A stretch of 64,000 bases of DNA from NCBI GenBank assembly GCA_030247885.1, contig JAPDRO010000004.1:992001-1056000 (forward strand), written 5' to 3'. A model generated the notes under the pieces. The model was not told the origin of the DNA, ran no database searches, and was given only the letters and a program-made list of their open reading frames with translations. Below, one piece after another: positions 4,400 to 46,600 of the stretch; positions within the stretch are counted from its first letter, which is position 1; the number at the start of each line of letters is the position of its first letter. Both the position numbers and the translations under genes were made by a program. This DNA is from Taxawa tesnikishii (nom. ined.) (taxonomy: Eukaryota; Ascomycota; Dothideomycetes; Dothideales).

Positions 4400-6276
4400 A
4401 TGTCAAGTTCCAACCCTGGTCCCGCAAACCCAGAAACGGTCGGTGTGCCTGGAAATTCGATCTGGACTGCTGCGGAGAAGGAAACCTTCTACAGGCACGC
4501 AGATGGAATGAAGATGGCAAACTGCGTCCCAAAGTCATGGATTCACAAGAAAGCAGAGTGGCCGAAGGATATGGACGAAGAATTGTTGCCGTTTGCGACC
4601 GAGAGACAGCTGGCTGATGATTTTGCGTTTATCGCTGCCTACCAGAATGGAGTACGCCAGGTTACCACGGCGACAGTCGAAGTTTCAAAGCAGGGCGTGA
4701 CGGTCAGGCTTGCTGCGAACGAGGGTGTCGACAAGTGTGTTCAAGTCGCACTCAGGGAGCTCTTTCGAATCCTTGAGAGCTGCGCTAGGAAAGGTTGGGT
4801 GCGAGACATTGCTCCGTCGTGTCAGTTGGCTAATTATTCGAGCAAGAGTCATCTCGACAGAAATGCACACAAGAAGCCCTGAACATTGTCGTGAATCTCA
4901 ATCGTAACCGGATCCTGGGAAGATTGGGATCCCCTTGGTATCAACCCCAATTTGATAGAGACAGGGCGAAGGATCTTTTGAGCAAGCGCTTGCAAGAGTG
5001 TGAACGATTCAGCGCCTGTATGCGCAGAAATGCCGCGGAAGTATATGCCGCATTGTCCGCTCAGTTGGACGCGTTCGACATTCTACCATCTCGGACGGAA
5101 GGTGACAATCCCTCTGCTGAGTTCAGCTTAGCGTTGAACTCCATCATTGAGAAAATCTCTCTGCTGCTGGACGGAGATATCTCGTTTCGTGAACGGTTCC
5201 CGGAACCTGGCAGCAAGGCTTCGGACAAGGAAGTAACATTGATGAAAGACCTAGATAAGATAGCGAACTACTGGCGGATCTCTAACGACCTAGCTGAGTG
5301 TTGTCGCTCCTACCGATGCTTGTTTTGGAACCTCACCCTTAGCATCATTCCGCACCACGAACCGACTGTGATAGGTAGAAAGAAAAGACACGTGCATGCG
5401 GAGATCCAGACAGTTGTCTATTACGAGACTCACCCCAATGGAAGAAGGCCCCGTGCAATCGGCTCATCCAAAGAAGCTTGCTTCCTGTGCGATGCATTCG
5501 TTAAAGCTCACGGCCAGTTCTATCTGTCAAAATCGCACCGTCAAGTCTACCCCCAATGGACAGTGCCTGAACTGAAAGAATACAGCCACACCAGTATCCT
5601 GCTGTTTCGGGAAACACTGAGAAAGGTGGACATGAGTATGAGAGAAGAGATGAACAGGACAAAGAAAAGACATAATCTGTTCCCTATCCAGAGCTCGATA
5701 AACCTGGACAAAGTGAACTATCTTGCACCTTCACTTACGACTCTGGCTCCTTCTGATGCCTCTACGATTCGAGCTGCGCCCTCGTTGCCGGTGTTGTTGC
5801 GAGACGAGCCAGGGACCTTGTGTAAAGACTCTGCCGACTCAGGAACGGAACAGCTGGAACGCGTCGATTCCGCATTGACACCAACAGTCCAAGAAGCCAC
5901 GGCTGCCAGAGACCAACATGTCACGCCAGAGCTAGAGAAGAATCCCAAGGCCTCAACCATGACGCCAGATGCTCCCATACACTTGAGGATGGGTTGGTTG
6001 AGTCTGCACACGCATCTGGAAGCGCACAGAGGAGTATCCGGCAACACCCGACTGCATGAACAGAGTGCACCCAAGAGGTTCTCACATGGGTCCATAAGCA
6101 TAGAGACTGTAGATCGAGGTGTAGCTGGTGTTGGAAAATGCATTGACATTGATGACTTGATGCCCGGCGAAGAGGTAGTGCTTCCGGTATCTGACAAGAT
6201 GGAAAACTGTCTGAGATTTACGATGATCCATCCGCAGAAGGGTTCTGTAAAGGTTCAATGTCAATGGCATTCCTGA
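4400..6276 (+). CDS. Predicted nucleic-acid/nucleotide deaminase, OTT_1508-like
   Basis: 604-residue protein: exon 4400-4798, 62-bp intron, exon 4861-6276. The centre (about residues 300-390) has the two zinc-binding halves of the deaminase fold: HAEIQTVVYYE (His and catalytic Glu) and SSKEACFLCDAF (CxxC), followed by HGQFYLSKSH and VYPQWTVPEL. This layout fits the OTT_1508-like deaminase family common in fungi, whose substrate is unknown. A helical region of about 290 residues precedes the domain and a Ser/Thr/Pro-rich tail of about 200 residues follows. No signal peptide is evident, so it should be cytosolic or nuclear. Family knowledge suggests an effector or nucleic-acid-editing role, but nothing here identifies a target. 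All expected metal ligands are present, so it looks active. Confidence 0.85.
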
Positions 6277-13390: not shown

Positions 13391-14450
13391 CTAGATACCC
13401 TTATCCGTCTTGGCCGCCTTTTGGACTCTCGCATTCCACTTGACCAATCCGTTTCTCCTCCCATTGCCCTTCTTCCGCTGCTCTTGGGCGTATTGGTCTG
13501 CCTTGTACTGGAAGATGCTGCCATCGAAGACGCGTCTGACGTCGTCCTTGCGCAGGATACCGTCTTCGGGCCAGAGGAGGAGGTAAGTCGCGAGCCCTGC
13601 GTGTCGAACATCAGCCAACGCCCCCGTAACTTTGGTTTTGTTTACGTGGAAAGGAGGAAGCAACTCACATTCCAAGAACGCAGCACTCCAACCGAAGAAA
13701 TCAAAAGCCATCCTCTGCCCCTTCAGTGCTCTGGACAGGTCCCAGAGGTCCAGTCCGCCCTTGTTGCCCCTGTCATACTTGCTGAAGAAGTCCTCGAAGT
13801 TTTGCGGGCGGAAGCGGCCCTCGTTGTCGTAGCTCATACTGTCACTGCCATGTTTATCCTTGTGCACGCGCGCGATCCAGATGCGGAAGAAGGGGTCAGG
13901 GAGATAGGTCGGGGAAGTTGGGTAGGAGAGGTTGAAGTTGATGATGAAGGTGGCGAAGGCGGCCAGGGGAATTGACCAGCCCCAGGCGCGGATGCCGCGG
14001 TAGGTGTCTTGCGGCCAGATGATGCCGTCGTTGTCGGTGTCCCAGTAGGAGCAGTGTTGCTGGACGACCTGTGGCAGAGTAGCGTCAGTAGCCGATGCGC
14101 GTGATGCCGGGGAAGGAGACACGGAGTCGGGAACTCACAGTCTGATGCTCATGCTTCTTCGCCCATCCGCCCTCAGTCGTGCCGTTCGGGGCCTCGTTCG
14201 TTGCCGCGATCGTCGCCCTCGCAGTGCCGGGGTCAAGCAGACGGTCGCCCTCCTTGGGGAAGTGTGGCAGGCGTTCTACGGTGACGGGCACGTCCTCGAC
14301 CGCGATGCTGTACGGTTTCTCGGGTGGGTAGTCGTCGATGGCCTTCCCGATCAGGCGCACCAGGTCGTTGGTGTCGCCGTTGATGACCAGCGTGCCGGTC
14401 CTGTTGTGGTCGGGCGCGCTGACGGAGAGGGCCGAAGGAAGCTCAGGCAT
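13391..14450 (-). CDS. Caleosin / peroxygenase
   Basis: Lipid-droplet and ER-associated haem peroxygenase that binds calcium. 305 residues from exons 14450-14139, 14068-13669 and 13596-13391 (introns 70 and 72 bp). A single EF-hand (YWDTDNDGIIWPQDTY) follows the His of QQHCSY. Next is an amphipathic membrane region with the proline knot (NLSYPTSPTYLPDPFFRI), then VHKDKHGSDSMSYDNEGRF, GLDLWDLSRALKGQRMAFDF and LLLWPEDGILRKDDVRRVFD, all in family order. I chose the ATG at 14450; an in-frame ATG at 14513 would add 21 residues (MSHLHLAPHLRRRYQ...), and both lie just downstream of a GAA repeat in the leader. In other fungi caleosins act in sporulation, oxylipin signalling and lipid storage. Confidence 0.93.
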
Positions 14451-14520
14451 GGTGGGCTCGTCGTCGGTTTGGTAGCGGCGGCGGAGATGGGGAGCGAGAT
14501 GGAGATGGGACATGCGCGAC

Positions 14521-14567
14521 GAGGAAGAAGAAGAAGAAGAAGAAGAAGAAGAAGGAGGAGGAGGAGC
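14521..14567. repeat. (GAA)n/(GAG)n microsatellite in the caleosin leader
   Basis: About 13 triplets of GAA then GAG on the plus strand, immediately upstream of the caleosin start (so a TTC/CTC tract in its 5' leader). Confidence 0.9.
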
Positions 14568-15303
14568 GACCAGGAGTGTTGATACTTGCAGCGCAAACCA
14601 AGCTGGTGTTTTGCTCACCTTTGCCTAATGCGCATTTGCATGTCGCGCCTGCGCTTGCATGTCTTCATTTCCCTGTCAAGTGGCCGCATCTCGCCAATAT
14701 CCTTGAACCCAGCAGTCTTGCCGTGATCCATACGTATGCATATCCAGACGTGATGGTGACGTTTGAAAATATATATCTCGCATGTGATTGTGATTGTGAT
14801 TTCTGCATCTGATTCTTGGCACTGACCCGATCGCATCCGTTTCCGATGCACCCCGGTCACACCAAGACGACGACGCAGACGAACGAGTCCGAGTCCGAGT
14901 CCGAGTCCGAGGCCGAGTCCTACAACCAGAATGAGTGCGACGTTCGTGCTGTCCTGTCTCGTTCCTGTTCCGTTCTGTTCTAATGAAAGTTGTTTCCAAT
15001 AAACGCAGCTAACTCAAAACGGAACTATAGATAGAAATATAAGGGGAAAAAATGAAAAACGCAAACGAAGTCGGAATAAAGCTCATCGAGGCTTAGATGA
15101 GGCTGAAACAACAAAGCTCAGAGTCTCTAAGCAAAGTGCAAAGTATCGCAGAGCACGAGCCGTGAACTGCGAGCGCAGCCCAATGCGAATCCAGAACCCA
15201 ACTCCCAAAGAACACAACACCAAACCGTTACTTAAAAAAAAAAAAGAACACCTCTATACCAATTCCAGAGCCGTCTAGGGACAATCAGATACAACCAACC
15301 CAC
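14568..15303. other. Intergenic, about 740 bp, with short tandem repeats
   Basis: Holds a GATTGT repeat near 14778-14801 and the hexamer repeat at 14884-14920. The rest is A-rich and probably contains the 3' end signals of the OTU gene (A9-10 run near 15234-15245). No gene seen. Confidence 0.4.
14884..14920. repeat. GTCCGA hexamer tandem repeat
   Basis: Four to five near-perfect copies of GTCCGA followed by a variant GGCCGA unit. Confidence 0.8.
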
Positions 15304-18300
15304 TTACTTCCTCCCTCCCTTCTTCCCTCCCTTCCCCTTTCCCTTTCCCTTTCCGCCCTTCTTCGCCGCACTCTTAGTCACCCTACCAGCGCGCGTACCG
15401 CTTCCAGCACCTCGAGCAGGCCTTGAGGCAGCTGCTGGAGCAGGTCCGGTGCGCGTACCGCCCGCAGCACCACGGCCGCCGGCACCTGGAGCGGGCCGCG
15501 AGGCAGGCTCGCCCCTCCGCCTCCTCGCCGCCCTCTCGGCCCTCGCTAACGGCGCTGCATGCGGATTCGCAGGTGCTGGGGCGGGCGCAGGAGGCGCCGC
15601 TGTGGTCGCCGTGGCGGCGGCTCCTCTCGCGGGCCGGCCAGCGCCGCGGCCCCGGGTTCGTGATACTGGAACCTCCACGTGCGAGGCCCTGCGGATGGCT
15701 CCCGATTGGGTGCGCGTGCGTATGGGCGACCTCCTTGGCGCGGGAGCCCTTCTTCGTCGCGCAGGGGCGGGGGCTGCGGTTGCGGATGGCGGCGGTGGCG
15801 GCGCTGAGGAGGACCACGACGTATGCGATCTCGGCCTCTGTGGAGTTCTCGGCGGCGACGGCTGGGGCGTTGCGAGCCTTGGTTGCGGCTGCTGGTTCTC
15901 CTTGTCCGAGTCCTCCGTTGCTGGTGAGGATCTGGTCGACCTCGTCGTGCCGCCCTGCTGTGGGGAAGCAACGCCGTGTCGGGTGGAACCATGATCAAGG
16001 CCCCTACTGGGGTTGCCTTGGTTCCTCGTCGCGGCCTCCGCAGCGGGGCTCTCGTCACCCACGCCCGTATCGCAATCAAAGTGCTCCACCGCAGTCGGAG
16101 TGGTCCCTCTATCTTGACGAGGATTAGATGGAGCCGGTGCGGTGGGAGATGGATCTGGAGAAGGTGTACGCGAGCGCTGGAATGGTCTCCCTGGAGATCG
16201 TCTTGGGGTAGTTGCGGCCCGGGGTGGAGTACGTGGCGAGCGGCATGTGCGAGTGAAATTTCCCAGAGGTGGTGCAGACTGAGGTCTCTTGTCCGGTCCA
16301 GAAATACCTGACTTTGGTCTCTTGCTCGGACTGGTAACCCTGTCTGCATCGGGGCTTCTTCTCTTCGTACCGGCGGATCCAGCGGATATACCAGAGTATC
16401 CTTGCCGGGCAGTCGTGCTACCAGAAGGCGGGTGTTTCTCTGTACTGTCGAGAACAATGTCGTGAAAGGGAGTGTTGCCTGGACTGGGTCCAGTTGGCGG
16501 TAGGATCTGCGCATTGTTGGTATCGTAGTTATAAGACCCCACTGGATCTCTTGTCAAAGAAGGCACCGGGCCCCCGCCAATCACCGGTTCTCTGACCGCG
16601 GGTGGGACGAGGATGGTTTGCGTAATCTCAAATTCAGCTTCTGGAGTCGGTCGCAGGCCGGTGTAGTGCTGGTAGTTCATGTAGCTCGCCAGATGTACTC
16701 TTCTGCTTGGATTGCGGTTGCCGCGTACGGCCTCCAACGTCCAGTGGTCTGCAACAGGATTGCCGTCGACCAAGACGACGTTATGCGGCGTCCAGACGAA
16801 GATCTCGACATCGAAAGCGTCGGCAAGGATCTGAAGAACACTGGCCGTGCCTGGGTTGCATCGTTAGCAATGTTGCAAAGTCACGATAGAGAGCTTGGAG
16901 ACTACTTACCCCATTCTCCATCATCCCAAACTTGTCGCCACAGCGAATGATCCTGCTGTAGCATACGTTGGTAGAGCTCATATCGTTCACTCCCGACAAC
17001 GGTTTCTTCGGGGCCCATCCTGACTATCGCCCATAGGTCACGCATGGCCCCGACCACCTCCCTGTAGCGGTCCTGGGTTCCAAACCAAGCTCGGGCAAAC
17101 GCGCGATACAAGCAGTTGCCATCTCCTGCAACATCAAGCTGCCGCATAAACATGGGGTTTGGTCTAGCTGCTCCGACCGTAGCCTCGGCCTGGATAGTGA
17201 TGCCCCTTCTTCCGGTCATCGCAAATTCTGCCCGCACGGCTGCCCGACGTCTTTCTCGACGCTCGCGGGCTTGGGCGGTCTCCGGCTCGTTCGCTGGCAT
17301 CTTTTCTCCCGCATCTCCTGTTGGCTGCTTCCCTCCCCGAGCCTTCGGCTTTCGGTCCTCTTGCCATCGACCCAGCCACATCTTTCCTTGTTGACGTCCA
17401 ATTCGTAGTTGATGAGGCGCAGGAGGAGCTCACAATCGTCGCCTTCAGTCTCAAGATCACGTTCCCCAAGAGCTTCAGGAGCCCCTGACGTCTCGCTTTG
17501 TCGGCGCGAGGATGGAGGGATCCGCGGCCACTACCGTGCTTCTCTAGTTCGGCATCGATGAGGAACGGCATACTGTTCCAGCTGCACCTTGCCTTGTTGA
17601 CACTGTATTCGTAAGAGAGAAGACGCCAGAGAAGCTCACAAATCGTGCCGTCGGTATTCAGTCCACGTTCGATCAATAATCCTTGGACCTCGACACGTCC
17701 ACCGTGCCAAGATACACGGCCATAGTCCTGCAGTCTTCTTTCGAGGGTCCCGAGGCTCTCTCCCTTTCGGTAGAGGAGCCCCAATTCGGCGAGGCGGCTG
17801 GAGAGAATATGCCTCATTAGGTTCCGGCATTCCTGGATCATCTGTTCACGGTCCAAATTGTGGTCGGGATGGAAGATTTCCTGGAGCCTGTCTGCAGCGG
17901 TGAGCTCTCGTGTGCCGCCATAATCGCAGGCCCACAGGGCGTAGTACATAATCTGCGGATCTTCCAATGGGGAAATTCGTCGCTGAGCATCATATCAATT
18001 TTTTCAATGAGTTCGTCAATGGTCTCGCCGGGATAGCGCAGATGGTTGTCCATCAGGAACCAAAAGTTACGCCGCAAACTCGATGCGAATGACAATGCGA
18101 ATGCGAGTCCGCCATATCTCCGAACTGTTTCGTTCTGCCATGCTGGGTAGTTCTCAAGAGGGTTGTCCCTCCCTAGATCTTGAAAATGAAGGTCCGTTGG
18201 GCTCGTCCTGACATCTCGCCAGTCTCTACCCCAATTGAAACCTCGTATATAGTTCGGCGAGTAAGGGCTTCCGCTATATCCCGAAGACGGCGGAAGCCAT

Positions 18301-19255
18301 CCGTCCTTAAACAGAGGAAGTGGGATTTTCGAGTCCGGGGTCCGAGGCGTACGAGAGGGTTTAGGAGTTGGCCAATTTTATCCAACGTGAACACGAAAGA
18401 GTTCTCCAATACCTCTTCTTCGGCGTCCCACCAATCATGCCATACATCCTCGCGTGCATCCCATCCTGCAGATCATCAGTATGAGGAAGGCACAAGATAG
18501 TATTTTCACGTACGGCTGCCCATGGAACCACGGTATGTTCGGTGGCATCTATGGCACTCAAGGTCAGCAGTCCCAGACTCTCTGTCAAGCTTGACAGTGA
18601 CCCTCCTTTTTCTGCAATATGCACAGAGGAAGGGGCCCCCTGTACGGTCTTTGAGCTCTGCTTCCGACTGTAGCTCGGCTTCCCAGTCGTCATATACACT
18701 CTTTTGAGTTGCACTCTCGCTGATCTCCTCGTCGAAGGTGGCATCGCAATGGCTACACCTGAGGGCACCCATAGGACATGGCCTGTAGTTCCATTGGAGC
18801 CTGATGGTCACGGCCTTTTCGCCGCAAACATGACATTTCCAGAGATTGCTCGAGTCGTCACTCGCAATTTCTCCATTGTTGTCCGAAGCACCATCAGATT
18901 TATTCTGCTCGTCATTGGGGCAGTTGCCCTGGGAGTCGTCCTTGGACTTGTCTTCGGCATCCTTACCGCCATCGTCCCCTGCATCGTCCCCTTTCCCGTT
19001 CCCGTTGTCCTGGGCTCCGTCTGCGCTGCTAGCGAACTCGTGATGATTGGTTTCGCTTGTCTCAATCAGGCCTTGCTCTTGCGCAAACTCCTCATCCGGA
19101 GAGTCATCAGCGTTTGGATCTCTCGGTGGAGTGTTGTGATAAATTGGCGATCTCTGCGGACCTCCAGACCATTGGGTTGATAGCGGCGTACGGGAAGCGT
19201 CTGCTGCTCCTCCCACTTCTGGGAGCCACGATTTGATGTAGGTTGTTAAACCCAT
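15304..19255 (-). CDS. Large OTU-domain cysteine protease with paired N-terminal CxxC modules; frame broken four times
   Basis: Predicted deubiquitinase-type protein of about 1282 residues once four single bases are restored; exon lengths then sum exactly to a multiple of three. Exons 19255-18514, 18465-16910 and 16850-15304; introns 48 and 59 bp. Order: an acidic Asp/Asn/Ser-rich N-terminus; two zinc-ribbon-like modules (WKCHVCGEKAVT...LRCSHC and FLCAYCRKRRVT...LECHRC); a WWDAEEEV region; a long helical region in which ICELLWRLLSYEYSVNK and DCELLLRLINYELDVNK are duplicated; an Arg-rich linker; the OTU core with catalytic DVAGDGNCLYRAF (Cys) and a late YQHYTGLRPT (His); then about 400 residues of Pro/Arg/Ser-rich, disordered sequence ending GKGKGKGGKKGGRK. 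The slips are near 18376, 17969, 17528 and 17383, three of them in base runs. The OTU call is firm; substrate and partners are unknown. Confidence 0.8.
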
Positions 19256-43621: not shown

Positions 43622-46600
43622 TTACTCCCAAATCGGCGCAACGATTTCAGCCGCCCTGTCCACCACAGCCCTCACGCGATCTGCCAGAACCCTGCTACTC
43701 GCGCACTCCACCTCCAGTTTCTCTAACCACACCTGCACAACGTGCTTATCGCACTTGACCTCCAGTCCTGGCACTGGAATGCCCATCCTATGGAGACGAT
43801 CCAACTCTTCTGCTTCCGCGCGCGCTCTTGTCTTCTCCGCTGCGATGGGGTCCGAGTCTGTCTCCGTGGCGAGGGACGCGGCGAGGCGAGGTTTGGCGAT
43901 GGGTGCAACGGCATCCTCGCCAAATTGTGCTTCAAGGAACATGCAAAGACGGGAAAGGCGCTCTTGCGGCGTGGTGTTGGCGTAAGGGTTGCGGCCTGCT
44001 TGTGGGGAATGGGAGTGGGAGTGCTGTTTTGAGGATTCTACGGGCAGTAATCAGTAAAAGAACCTCCGAGTAGTGAAAGGGTCGAAGGGAGGGAATAGAC
44101 TGGGGAAACTTACGCTTAACGGCGGCAGGGCTGGTCTCGACCGAAAAGAGTACAGCCATGACTGCGTCCGCGATACCGTCGTTCTGGATGTTGCCTTCCC
44201 ATTCCACCTCAATTTCTCCTTGCTCTTTCACTTGAACCCGCACCGCGCCCATGACCTCGAAGGTAGTGCCGACGTGGCGAGAGATTTCCTCGTCGGCGTC
44301 TTCGGTCTTGGTTTGGCCGTTGGTGTCAATGTTCATCTTGACGTCGTTGCCGTTCATTTCTGGCGTTAGAACCTTGAGCGTCCCAAACGTGCCTTCAAGA
44401 GCCCATCTGATGAGGTCCACACCGGCATACGACAGCGTCAACCGTTGACGGCAGACGATGGTGGTCGTAGTCAAGCCGGCATACTCTTTGAGATCTTCCG
44501 GAGCCATAAGACTGAGCTTGAAGTCGTTCTGCACCAGTACGCCTGAAATAATCTGTCCACCAGTGTCTATGCGGGGCTTCTTCTCTTCCAATCCCTCTTC
44601 CTCGAGAGACGATGGGGGTGACGGCAAAGCTGCAGGTATCTGGATCTGATCCGCGAGACGCCCAACGACATTGACAACTTTGTCCTGCCGGAAGGGAATG
44701 CGAAGCTGCTCGGTGTTGGCAGGAGAGAAGACTTTGACCGGTGTGGTTTTGTTGGCATTGAGGGATAAGAGCTTCGACTTGAAGCGCATCATGTTCGTTT
44801 TCTCGCCATGAACAAGAATCTGCAAATTACGGCGTCAGTGTTACCGTTCACATCAGGGCGGGAGTTGGTGAATCTTGCTTACCACCACAGGTGCACCGAC
44901 TTCTTCCACAAACTCTCTGTTCTCGGTGCCATCAACATGCGCGGCAAAACTGTACTCCGCAACGGTGCAGCGCCTGGGTATCATGACCTTCTCGCCCTCG
45001 GCACCAGCCTTGGCGCCCCTGGCACCGACACCCTGCACTCTTCCCCGGTTCTAGCTGTCATAACCGCCTGGATGCTCTCCGGCTCCGTTAAGATCTGCTT
45101 CGCCATGGTGCCTTCGACACTGTATCCGGTAACGATGACGCCGTTCTTCGGGTCAGGAGCCCATCGCTCAAGCAGCGCGCGAGAAACACCGTTCTGCAGC
45201 ATACCAGGGAAGCCAGCATCACGCAACCACCGACATCATCGAAGCGGTCCAAACTCTTGAGGCTTCGAATCCAGCGGAAGTCCCACGGTCCTCCGGCGGC
45301 CTTGTTTCCGTCCTTGTCGCCATTTGCGGCCTCGGCAAGTCGGTTCTGAAACATGTTCCGGATGTTGTCGTTCATGGCGTCGATGTACGTCTGGTAGACT
45401 ACCATACACTTCTTGGCCAAGCTACTGGCGTAGTATATGGGGTATTTCCGGTATTCAGGATGCCGGTTCCAGTAGTCCTCCAGAATGAGCAACAATTCCT
45501 GCGCTCTACCGATGGCGAACACGGGCATCAGGACTCGGCCTCCACGGTTGAGAATTCCGGTTAGGTTCTTCATGAGCGCAGTTTCTCTCTCTACCCGGGG
45601 TATGTGCGACGCGACCCCGAACGTGGATTCGGTGATCAGAACATCGACTTTGATGCCTTTTGGTATGGTTGCTGGAATCAGATGTCGGTCGTGTTCTCTG
45701 CTGTAATCACCGGTAAAGAGGATGCTAAGACCAGCAATCTCGATCAAATACATGCACGCTCCGAGAACATGACCGGCCGGGTATGGTGTAAAACGGATTC
45801 CGTTATGAGTGTGAGTCGTGTTGAAAGCGACTGTCTGGATGAGGGGAGTGTGTTCAGCATGTCCTGTTCGGTGAACAATGCCGATAGATGTTCTGAAGCG
45901 GTTTGCGTGTTCCTGCATCATGTCAACGATTAGAGTAGGAGTACCAGCATCGCGAACTTACTGTACACGAACGGAATCTTGCATGAGCCATTTGTAGATG
46001 GCCTTGGTCGGATGTGTCATGTAAACCCGCCCATTGAAGTTGGTCTTTGCTAGGACGAAGGGCAGCGAGGCGGCATGGTCCATGTGGAAGCTAGAATCGT
46101 ATCAGCATGCTGCCTCTCCGTCTTGAGAATAGTTTCGCTTTGACAAAGACCTAAGTGCAAGGGGCAGGCATGCGATCACAGGAACCAGGAGTGGAAGTAA
46201 AAATGTTGCATTTCGTAACTATGTACATTCGTGCAGTCCAGGCTCCTGTCGCAACACCATTCTCTCCTGCCTATCAGGCCGAATAAGGATAGGAGATGAA
46301 GGCACAAAAAGTGTGACGAAGACGAGCGAGCGGTGCTTCCTGTGACCACATGCCTGGTCGCCATGTAGATACCGAGCGACAAGCGCTGTCGCGCTTACAA
46401 ATAAAAGAAGAAAACACTTACTGAGTGACGAGGAGCAGATCTACAGTACTGAGATCGAAATCATCGTAGAAGGGAAGCGAGGCAAACCCGTCGTACGCTG
46501 GATGTACGCCTGCATCAAGCTAGACAGACACTTAGCTTCTCTTCGCAACCGCAAGATAGCCAAGCGTACCATGACCGTCTTCCCCTTGTATTGTATGATA

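What the first reader, a model, noticed from the sequence alone, without database searches (positions are those of the whole stretch)
15304..19255. Giant OTU protease with twin CxxC modules and a Lys/Gly tail
Seen: two N-terminal modules with paired CxxC, a duplicated helix unit (CELLxRLxxYExxVNK), an OTU catalytic Cys motif (DGNCLYRAF) split by an intron from the His motif, and a 400-residue disordered tail ending GKGKGKGGKKGGRK. OTU proteases are deubiquitinases; a fusion to two ribbon-like modules and a basic tail is not an arrangement I know. The modules could read ubiquitin or nucleic acid, and the tail could hold the protein on chromatin or RNA. Function is inference.
Basis: partly seen in the sequence, partly recalled or inferred. 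Interest (0 to 1): 0.75.

Follow-up and report, generated by a model that had tools for sequence, protein, structure and literature searches.

The report
Elf1-type ribbons joined to OTU deubiquitinase
A fungal gene appears to join two copies of a small RNA polymerase II-binding zinc module (Elf1) to a ubiquitin-removing enzyme (OTU), which suggests a deubiquitinase that rides on transcribing polymerase; the joining and the activity still need transcript and biochemical proof.

Summary
The parts are real. On the minus strand, 19255 to 15304, lie two Elf1-type zinc ribbons (PF05129, 42.7 bits, cut-off 29.8), a 31-residue unit occurring twice (19 of 31 identical), a spliced OTU core (PF02338, 30.3 bits, cut-off 23.3) and a basic, disordered-looking tail. 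The second matches this genome's own Elf1 (z 20.8), and both genes carry a phase-1 intron at the same alignment column, so it very likely descends from an Elf1 gene. Both ribbons keep the Asp-Trp of YSDW (S72K/D73K disrupts ELOF1-Pol II binding); neither keeps the whole N30-H31-E32 ligase dock. Best reading: a deubiquitinase tethered to elongating Pol II. Cautions: the frame changes four times without a clear intron between 18378 and 17300; similar breaks occur in YSH1 in this window and elsewhere in the genome, so assembly error is likelier than decay. The ribbon-to-OTU join, the tail's frame, Pol II binding and catalysis are unproven (Thr, not Asp/Asn, two after the His); coding statistics are weak over the middle. 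No fungal collection could be searched. The repeat is SAP-like only weakly.

The parts
15304..19255 (-). whole proposed gene, ATG at 19255, stop ending at 15304
   Evidence: successive open frames on one strand with two clear introns and four frame changes without a clear intron
18845..19255 (-). N-terminal acidic, low-complexity segment
   Evidence: sequence; best hexamer score in the ATG frame
18671..18844 (-). Elf1-type zinc ribbon 1 with VYDDW
   Evidence: PF05129 25.6 bits alone (below the 29.8 cut-off), E 1.3e-5, profile 23-76 of 79; z 10.1 to own Elf1
18410..18634 (-). Elf1-type zinc ribbon 2 (with its intron) and VWHDW
   Evidence: spliced, PF05129 37.4 bits, above the 29.8 cut-off, profile 23-78 of 79; z 20.8 to own Elf1
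18466..18513 (-). 48-nt intron, phase 1, at the same alignment column as an intron of the genome's own Elf1 gene
17671..18409 (-). linker and helix-rich region of unknown family; holds two of the four frame changes
   Evidence: no Pfam family near its cut-off; single-sequence model mean pLDDT 60, helical blocks 68-84; no fold match at E <= 0.001
17578..17670 (-). repeat unit 1 (31-residue core), SAP-like
17372..17464 (-). repeat unit 2 (31-residue core), SAP-like
16910..17159 (-). OTU domain, first exon part, DGNC motif with the catalytic Cys codon at 17114
16851..16909 (-). 59-nt intron inside the OTU domain, with a GCTAAC branch-like site
   Evidence: read
16630..16850 (-). OTU domain, second exon part, HYTGL motif with the His codon at 16668
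15304..16629 (-). basic Pro/Ala/Arg/Gly/Ser/Thr-rich tail, 441 codons open, ending in a Lys/Gly run; frame uncertain

Best explanation
One nuclear fungal protein of about 1,280 residues in which two Elf1-derived zinc ribbons tether an OTU deubiquitinase to elongating RNA polymerase II. The ribbons (shown by profile to be Elf1-type) would dock where Elf1 docks, on the Rpb2 lobe at the DNA entry tunnel (inferred from the kept Asp-Trp at the helix start). The SAP-like units and basic tail would add contact with DNA or RNA (weak inference). The OTU core would trim ubiquitin from Rpb1 or neighbouring factors on stalled polymerase, in the sense of yeast Ubp3 and Ubp2/Ubp6, so that polymerase restarts instead of being degraded (inferred). 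Because the ligase-docking N-H-E of ELOF1 is not kept whole in either ribbon, the protein may occupy the Elf1 site without recruiting the ubiquitin ligase (inferred).
For: Both ribbons match PF05129 over profile 23-76 or 23-78 of 79. Ribbon 2 has z 20.8 to the genome's own Elf1 and shares a phase-1 intron with it at the same column. The low-confidence model of the pair has ELOF1/Elf1 chains at Foldseek ranks 3-7, probability 0.99-1.00 over 44 columns, none at E <= 0.001. The own Elf1 aligns, 2-59 to 24-81, with human ELOF1, which puts the DW of both ribbons at D73-W74; S72K/D73K is used to disrupt Pol II binding (figure legend) and N30/H31/E32 contact CSA. The spliced OTU passes its Pfam cut-off, with Cys and His motifs. 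Ubp3 and Ubp2/Ubp6 deubiquitinate Rpb1 on stalled Pol II in yeast, so such a task exists. All parts lie on one strand in overlapping or adjoining open frames.
Against: No transcript, no relative and no structure of the joined protein. The joint between ribbons and the rest falls where two frames score alike, and coding statistics over ribbon 2 favour another frame. Ser72 is Asp in ribbon 1 and His in ribbon 2; ribbon 1 alone is below the Pfam cut-off; the basic N-tail of Elf1 is replaced by an acidic one. Foldseek ranks 1-2 for the ribbon model are a yeast RNA polymerase I subunit, not Elf1. The residue two after the OTU His is Thr, not Asp/Asn. Two ribbons on one chain cannot both sit on one Elf1 site. 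Pol II ubiquitylation is reported not to be essential in yeast transcription-coupled repair. No call tested Pol II binding.
Confidence: 0.42

Rival explanations
1. A chromatin- or RNA-tethered OTU deubiquitinase: the ribbons have drifted from Elf1 and no longer bind Pol II; SAP-like units and basic tail place the enzyme on DNA or RNA.
For: Ribbon 1 is well diverged (25.6 bits). The only two PDB sequences returned for the repeat profile at E <= 10 are both the SAP domain of yeast THO1, at E 1.3; 2 of 500 shuffles reach the SAP score for either unit. Tail net charge +47 in the open frame.
Against: No Pfam SAP match for either unit. Asp-Trp kept at the helix start of both ribbons.
Confidence: 0.25
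2. A catalytically dead OTU used to bind ubiquitin on Pol II or chromatin instead of cleaving it.
For: The His motif is H-Y-T, while the Asp/Asn usually follows the His by two (recalled for most OTUs); [quoted passage not shown]
Against: Catalytic Cys and His motifs are intact; another OTU locus of this genome, L002, reads H-Y-S at what looks like the same place (by eye), and some active OTUs take the acidic residue from elsewhere (recalled).
Confidence: 0.13
3. Two adjacent genes: a twin-ribbon Elf1-like protein ending at 18173, and an OTU protein starting near 18050.
For: The ribbon frame runs on, open, to a stop at 18173, and hexamer scores there do not separate it from the other frame (-1.1 against 0.2 and -2.5 against -2.0). 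This reading removes the first frame change.
Against: Only about 120 nt would separate the two, and the second frame is open from 18377, so it overlaps the first gene. The remaining three frame changes would still be there.
Confidence: 0.15
4. A decaying pseudogene.
For: Four frame changes in about 1.1 kb; a path search left 18646-16860 uncalled as coding.
Against: YSH1 in the same window also changes frame without room for an intron, inside a stretch that matches human CPSF73. A scan of 20 stretches of 10 kb plus two window parts found 21 frame changes with overlapping open frames and no intron candidate in about 120 kb called coding; 14 of the 21 go in the same direction as the four here, and L017 has three in a row. 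The CxxC pairs, the OTU Cys and the OTU His are in place.
Confidence: 0.1

Closest known systems
Elf1 / ELOF1 (PF05129), Pol II elongation and transcription-coupled repair factor
   Same: Two CxxC pairs, conserved V-[YW]-x-D-W start of the C-terminal helix, and in ribbon 2 the same intron column and phase as the genome's own Elf1
   Different: Two ribbons in tandem, joined to an OTU; acidic instead of basic N-terminus; Ser72 changed; ligase-docking N-H-E not kept whole in either ribbon
OTU deubiquitinases (PF02338), such as Otu1/Otu2 of yeast
   Same: DGNC Cys motif, WG...LxxLAxAFxVxIxVW stretch, HY His motif
   Different: Elf1-type ribbons and a SAP-like repeat in front, basic tail behind; Thr at His+2. 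A review lists two OTUs each for S. cerevisiae and M. oryzae and one for C. neoformans; this genome shows two other OTU loci besides this one.
Yeast Ubp3 and Ubp2/Ubp6, which deubiquitinate Rpb1 on stalled Pol II
   Same: the proposed task
   Different: USP-type enzymes, not OTU, and not joined to an Elf1 ribbon (recalled)
SAP domain (THO1, SARNP and others)
   Same: ERxLxTxGxxxELLxRLxxYE pattern; the only PDB hits of the repeat profile
   Different: E 1.3 only, no Pfam match; extra VNKxRCxW after the second helix

Membership tests
Elf1 zinc ribbon (PF05129) | profile match above the curated cut-off | tested here: met
   first exon 42.7 bits, ribbon 2 spliced 37.4, cut-off 29.8; ribbon 1 alone 25.6, below it; in the unspliced genome search the two single matches were 26.4 and 25.5, both below it
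Elf1 zinc ribbon (PF05129) | two CxxC pairs | tested here: met
   both ribbons
Elf1 zinc ribbon (PF05129) | Y-S-D-W start of the Pol II-docking helix | tested here: inconclusive
   D and W kept in both; S is D in ribbon 1 and H in ribbon 2; role of S72/D73
Elf1 zinc ribbon (PF05129) | basic N-terminal tail, stand-alone small protein | tested here: not met
   acidic N-terminus; the genome's own Elf1 has the usual basic start. So: Elf1-derived domains, not an Elf1 protein.
Elf1 zinc ribbon (PF05129) | binds elongating Pol II | not testable with these tools
   needs a binding assay or a complex prediction
OTU protease (PF02338) | profile match above cut-off | tested here: met
   spliced 30.3 against 23.3 bits, profile 2-86 of 128
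OTU protease (PF02338) | catalytic Cys and His | tested here: met
   DGNC (Cys codon 17114) and HYTGL (His codon 16668); the His lies beyond the profile-aligned part and was read by eye
OTU protease (PF02338) | Asp/Asn two after the His | tested here: not met
   Thr; OTUs may lack the Asp/Asn, so I keep it as an OTU domain but not as a proven enzyme
OTU protease (PF02338) | deubiquitinase activity | not testable with these tools
   needs a chain-cleavage assay
SAP domain (PF02037, accession recalled) | profile match | tested here: not met
   no Pfam hit at E <= 10 for either unit; weak likeness only

The most novel reading that the evidence does not exclude
A deubiquitinase built by joining a duplicated Elf1 gene, intron included, to an OTU protease: an enzyme that sits at Elf1's site on elongating Pol II, lacks the ligase dock, and erases the ubiquitin mark that Elf1/ELOF1 helps to place.
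Probability: 0.35. Interest if true: 0.82.

Novelty: new variant of a known kind. Interest (0 to 1): 0.6.

Why it matters
[quoted passage not shown] An Elf1-OTU fusion would show that evolution has coupled the Elf1 docking site to ubiquitin removal, and would give a natural tool to erase ubiquitin at elongating polymerase. It makes a clear prediction (Pol II binding competed by Elf1; cleavage of ubiquitin on Rpb1) that ordinary assays can test.

Tried and rejected
Tried without result: a genome-contig scan with the helix/repeat piece (15 pattern matches, none a relative) and a viral-contig scan with a piece of the first OTU exon (2 pattern matches, none a relative); these collections are prokaryotic and viral, so this says nothing about fungi. 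Fold of the helix/repeat piece: mean pLDDT 60, no match at E <= 0.001. The first PDB hits of that piece by sequence were TAL-effector repeats, 5.4e-4 for the whole chain but at most 4 bits for any single repeat of that chain, so I set them aside as an effect of summing repeats. NCBIfam gave no hit near its cut-offs. Ribbon 2 also matches UPF0515 at E 6e-4, under that family's cut-off. The best PDB sequence match of the OTU core is a viral RNA polymerase chain (a nairovirus OTU, by recall), 1.7e-6 in two short pieces; the next match is at 0.046. I do not claim a viral origin from it. A tblastn of the OTU core against the two other OTU loci of the genome gave only short weak pieces, all in one of them, so it looks like no recent copy of either.

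Results against my reading: a codon score trained on eight window genes favours another frame over ribbon 2 (18715-18415). The path search likewise puts 18651-18372 in another frame, and the stricter one leaves 18646-16860 uncalled and switches frames in the tail. In the segment table the assumed frame is best for 11 of 11 non-tail segments that assume one frame (two of the 11, the ribbons and the first OTU exon, are still negative), three join segments are near ties, and in the tail the assumed frame is best in 3 of 5. The SAP model was reached by 2 of 500 shuffles for each unit, and for unit 2 the best shuffle scored 16.2 against 8.6.

Considered and rejected as the first choice: pseudogene, because frame breaks without introns also occur in YSH1 and elsewhere in this assembly; the intron test there was rough and motif-based, so the count of 21 is approximate, and the model was trained on the same stretches. 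An intron in place of the first frame change is possible but has a weak donor (read).

Literature: ten searches were made. Four of them combined OTU with Elf1 or ELOF1 terms. One search held one paper, without Elf1. One search held six, none with 'elf1-like'. One search held 854 papers with at least three of five terms, of which I saw the ten listed, none with ELOF1., ELOF1 with 'OTU domain', held one paper, a gene-expression study that I did not open. I therefore saw no description of an Elf1-OTU fusion, in open-licence PMC papers only.
Full report
What is there. The window is part of a 29.4 Mb genome of 34 contigs. It is eukaryotic by its genes (Rad1, TAF4, CPSF73) and by its short introns probably fungal; the species was not identified. 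On the minus strand, from an ATG at 19255 to a stop ending at 15304, runs a chain of open frames. In order it holds an acidic low-complexity N-terminus, two zinc modules, a helix-rich region, a unit that occurs twice, an OTU core and a long basic tail. Two introns are clear: 48 nt at 18513-18466 and 59 nt at 16909-16851 (read). Removing only these leaves about 1,280 codons.

The zinc modules are Elf1-type. Pfam gives Zn_ribbon_Elf1 (PF05129) 42.7 bits for the first exon against a cut-off of 29.8. Taken singly, ribbon 2 with its exons joined scores 37.4 bits over profile positions 23-78 of 79; ribbon 1 scores 25.6 bits (E 1.3e-5) over 23-76, below the cut-off. The genome has an ordinary Elf1 gene elsewhere (C4, 70.3 bits; 90.1 bits for the joined ribbon). 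Against it ribbon 2 scores 109, shuffle mean 21.8, maximum 50 of 1000, z 20.8 (24 identical residues of about 60 by my count of the printed alignment); ribbon 1 has z 10.1. The strongest sign of descent is the intron. In ribbon 2 (48 nt) and in the own Elf1 (51 nt) it is phase 1 and splits the codon at the same alignment column, 11 residues before the Trp of the DW pair by my count. So ribbon 2 very likely came from an Elf1 gene, intron included.

Which Elf1 functions could remain. In human ELOF1 the C-terminal helix docks on the RPB2 lobe (PMC10948364, section read). S72K/D73K is used to disrupt Pol II binding of X. laevis ELOF1 (PMC11645862, one figure-legend passage). C29 with N30, H31 and E32 contacts CSA, and N30A-H31A-E32A supports transcription but not Pol II ubiquitylation (PMC10948364, passages). 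The own Elf1 aligns to the human chain 2-59 to 24-81, which fixes the numbering. Both ribbons keep Asp73 and Trp74 (VYDDW, VWHDW); Ser72 is Asp or His. N-H-E reads G, gap, E in ribbon 1 and gap, R, K in ribbon 2. This pattern fits Pol II contact without ligase docking, but no call tested binding.

The OTU core. The first exon alone is under the OTU cut-off (15.7 bits). Joined at the intron it scores 30.3 against 23.3, profile 2-86 of 128. The Cys motif DGNC and the HYTGL motif are present; the latter lies beyond the profile-aligned part and was read by eye. The residue two after the His is Thr. [quoted passage not shown] The best solved-structure match by sequence is a viral RNA polymerase chain, 1.7e-6, the next 0.046. 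The family search of the genome listed two other OTU loci; it did not list this one, whose domain is split by its intron.

The repeat. Two units share 19 of 31 residues (score 104, shuffle maximum 46 of 2000), and the genome search listed no third copy. I suspected a SAP motif from memory. A profile of the two units then returned just two PDB sequences at E <= 10, both yeast THO1, each at E 1.3. A small SAP model made from five recalled sequences scored the pieces 3.7 and 8.6 bits, reached by 2 of 500 shuffles each. Pfam reports no SAP. SAP-like is a lead only.

The tail. 441 codons are open, rich in P, A, R, G, S and T, net charge +47; none of 2000 simulated stretches stayed open in that frame. 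But codon and hexamer scores favour other frames at 16435-16135 and 15955-15655, and the Lys/Gly end is a polypurine run that reads similarly in other frames. The tail is probably coding; its exact sequence is not to be trusted.

The frame breaks. Between 18378 and 17300 the frame changes four times without a clear intron. To see whether this is decay or assembly error I looked at YSH1/CPSF73 in the same window. Its first large open frame matches human CPSF73 up to residue 330, and then the matching sequence continues at once in another frame; a later open frame matches from residue 415. In 20 stretches of 10 kb plus two parts of the window, a hexamer path search called about 120 kb of coding sequence with 32 direct frame changes; 21 of these have overlapping open frames and no intron candidate, 14 of them in the same direction as the four here. 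The intron test was rough. Breaks are thus common in this assembly, and four here do not by themselves mean a pseudogene. The same search left 18646-16860 of this gene uncalled and switched frames in the tail, and codon scores favour another frame over ribbon 2. So the middle of the gene rests on open frames, domain matches and the repeat more than on coding statistics.

One gene or two. The ribbon frame stays open to 18173 and the next frame is open from 18377; hexamer scores tie there. A twin-ribbon gene followed at once by an OTU gene is not excluded. Against it, the second would have to start about 120 nt after the first, with its frame overlapping the first gene. I give one gene about 0.8.

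Structure. The ribbon pair folded from a single sequence is poor (mean pLDDT 52), but residues 81-110 (in ribbon 2) average 74-79. Foldseek lists a yeast RNA polymerase I subunit at ranks 1-2 and ELOF1/Elf1 chains at ranks 3-7 with probability 0.99-1.00 over 44 columns, none at E <= 0.001. The helix piece gave mean pLDDT 60 and no such match.

Mechanism. In yeast, Ubp3 and Ubp2/Ubp6 deubiquitinate Rpb1 on stalled Pol II as a first line of defence before degradation (PMC7653365, section read). The most economical reading of two Elf1-derived ribbons in front of an OTU core is a deubiquitinase placed on elongating polymerase. Shown: Elf1-type ribbons by profile, OTU core by profile with Cys and His motifs. 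Well supported: descent of ribbon 2 from Elf1. Inferred: one protein, Pol II docking, activity, substrate. The confidences given for the rivals are not exclusive of one another.

Novelty. The domains are known; I saw the combination in none of the ten literature searches, four of which combined OTU with Elf1 or ELOF1 (12, 49, 74, 75). No fungal collection was available, so how widespread the order is remains unknown. I rate it a new variant of a known kind.

Noticed in passing
window 43935-45957 (-): YSH1/CPSF73 gene: the frame changes without room for an intron inside a stretch matching human CPSF73, so the assembly carries frame errors in conserved genes.
   Followed up: yes
L017, reverse complement, about 1286-2079: three successive frame changes without intron candidates within 800 nt.
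   Followed up: no
window 4834-6273 (+): 480-residue open frame with an OTT_1508-like deaminase domain (PF14441, E 2.2e-19).
   Followed up: no
window 13391-14624 (-): caleosin-like gene next to the OTU gene (name recalled, not searched), with a (GAA)n run near 14525-14555.
   Followed up: no
window 16630-17159 (-): the OTU core's best sequence match among solved structures is a viral RNA polymerase chain (nairovirus OTU by recall), 1.7e-6 in two short pieces.
   Followed up: partly
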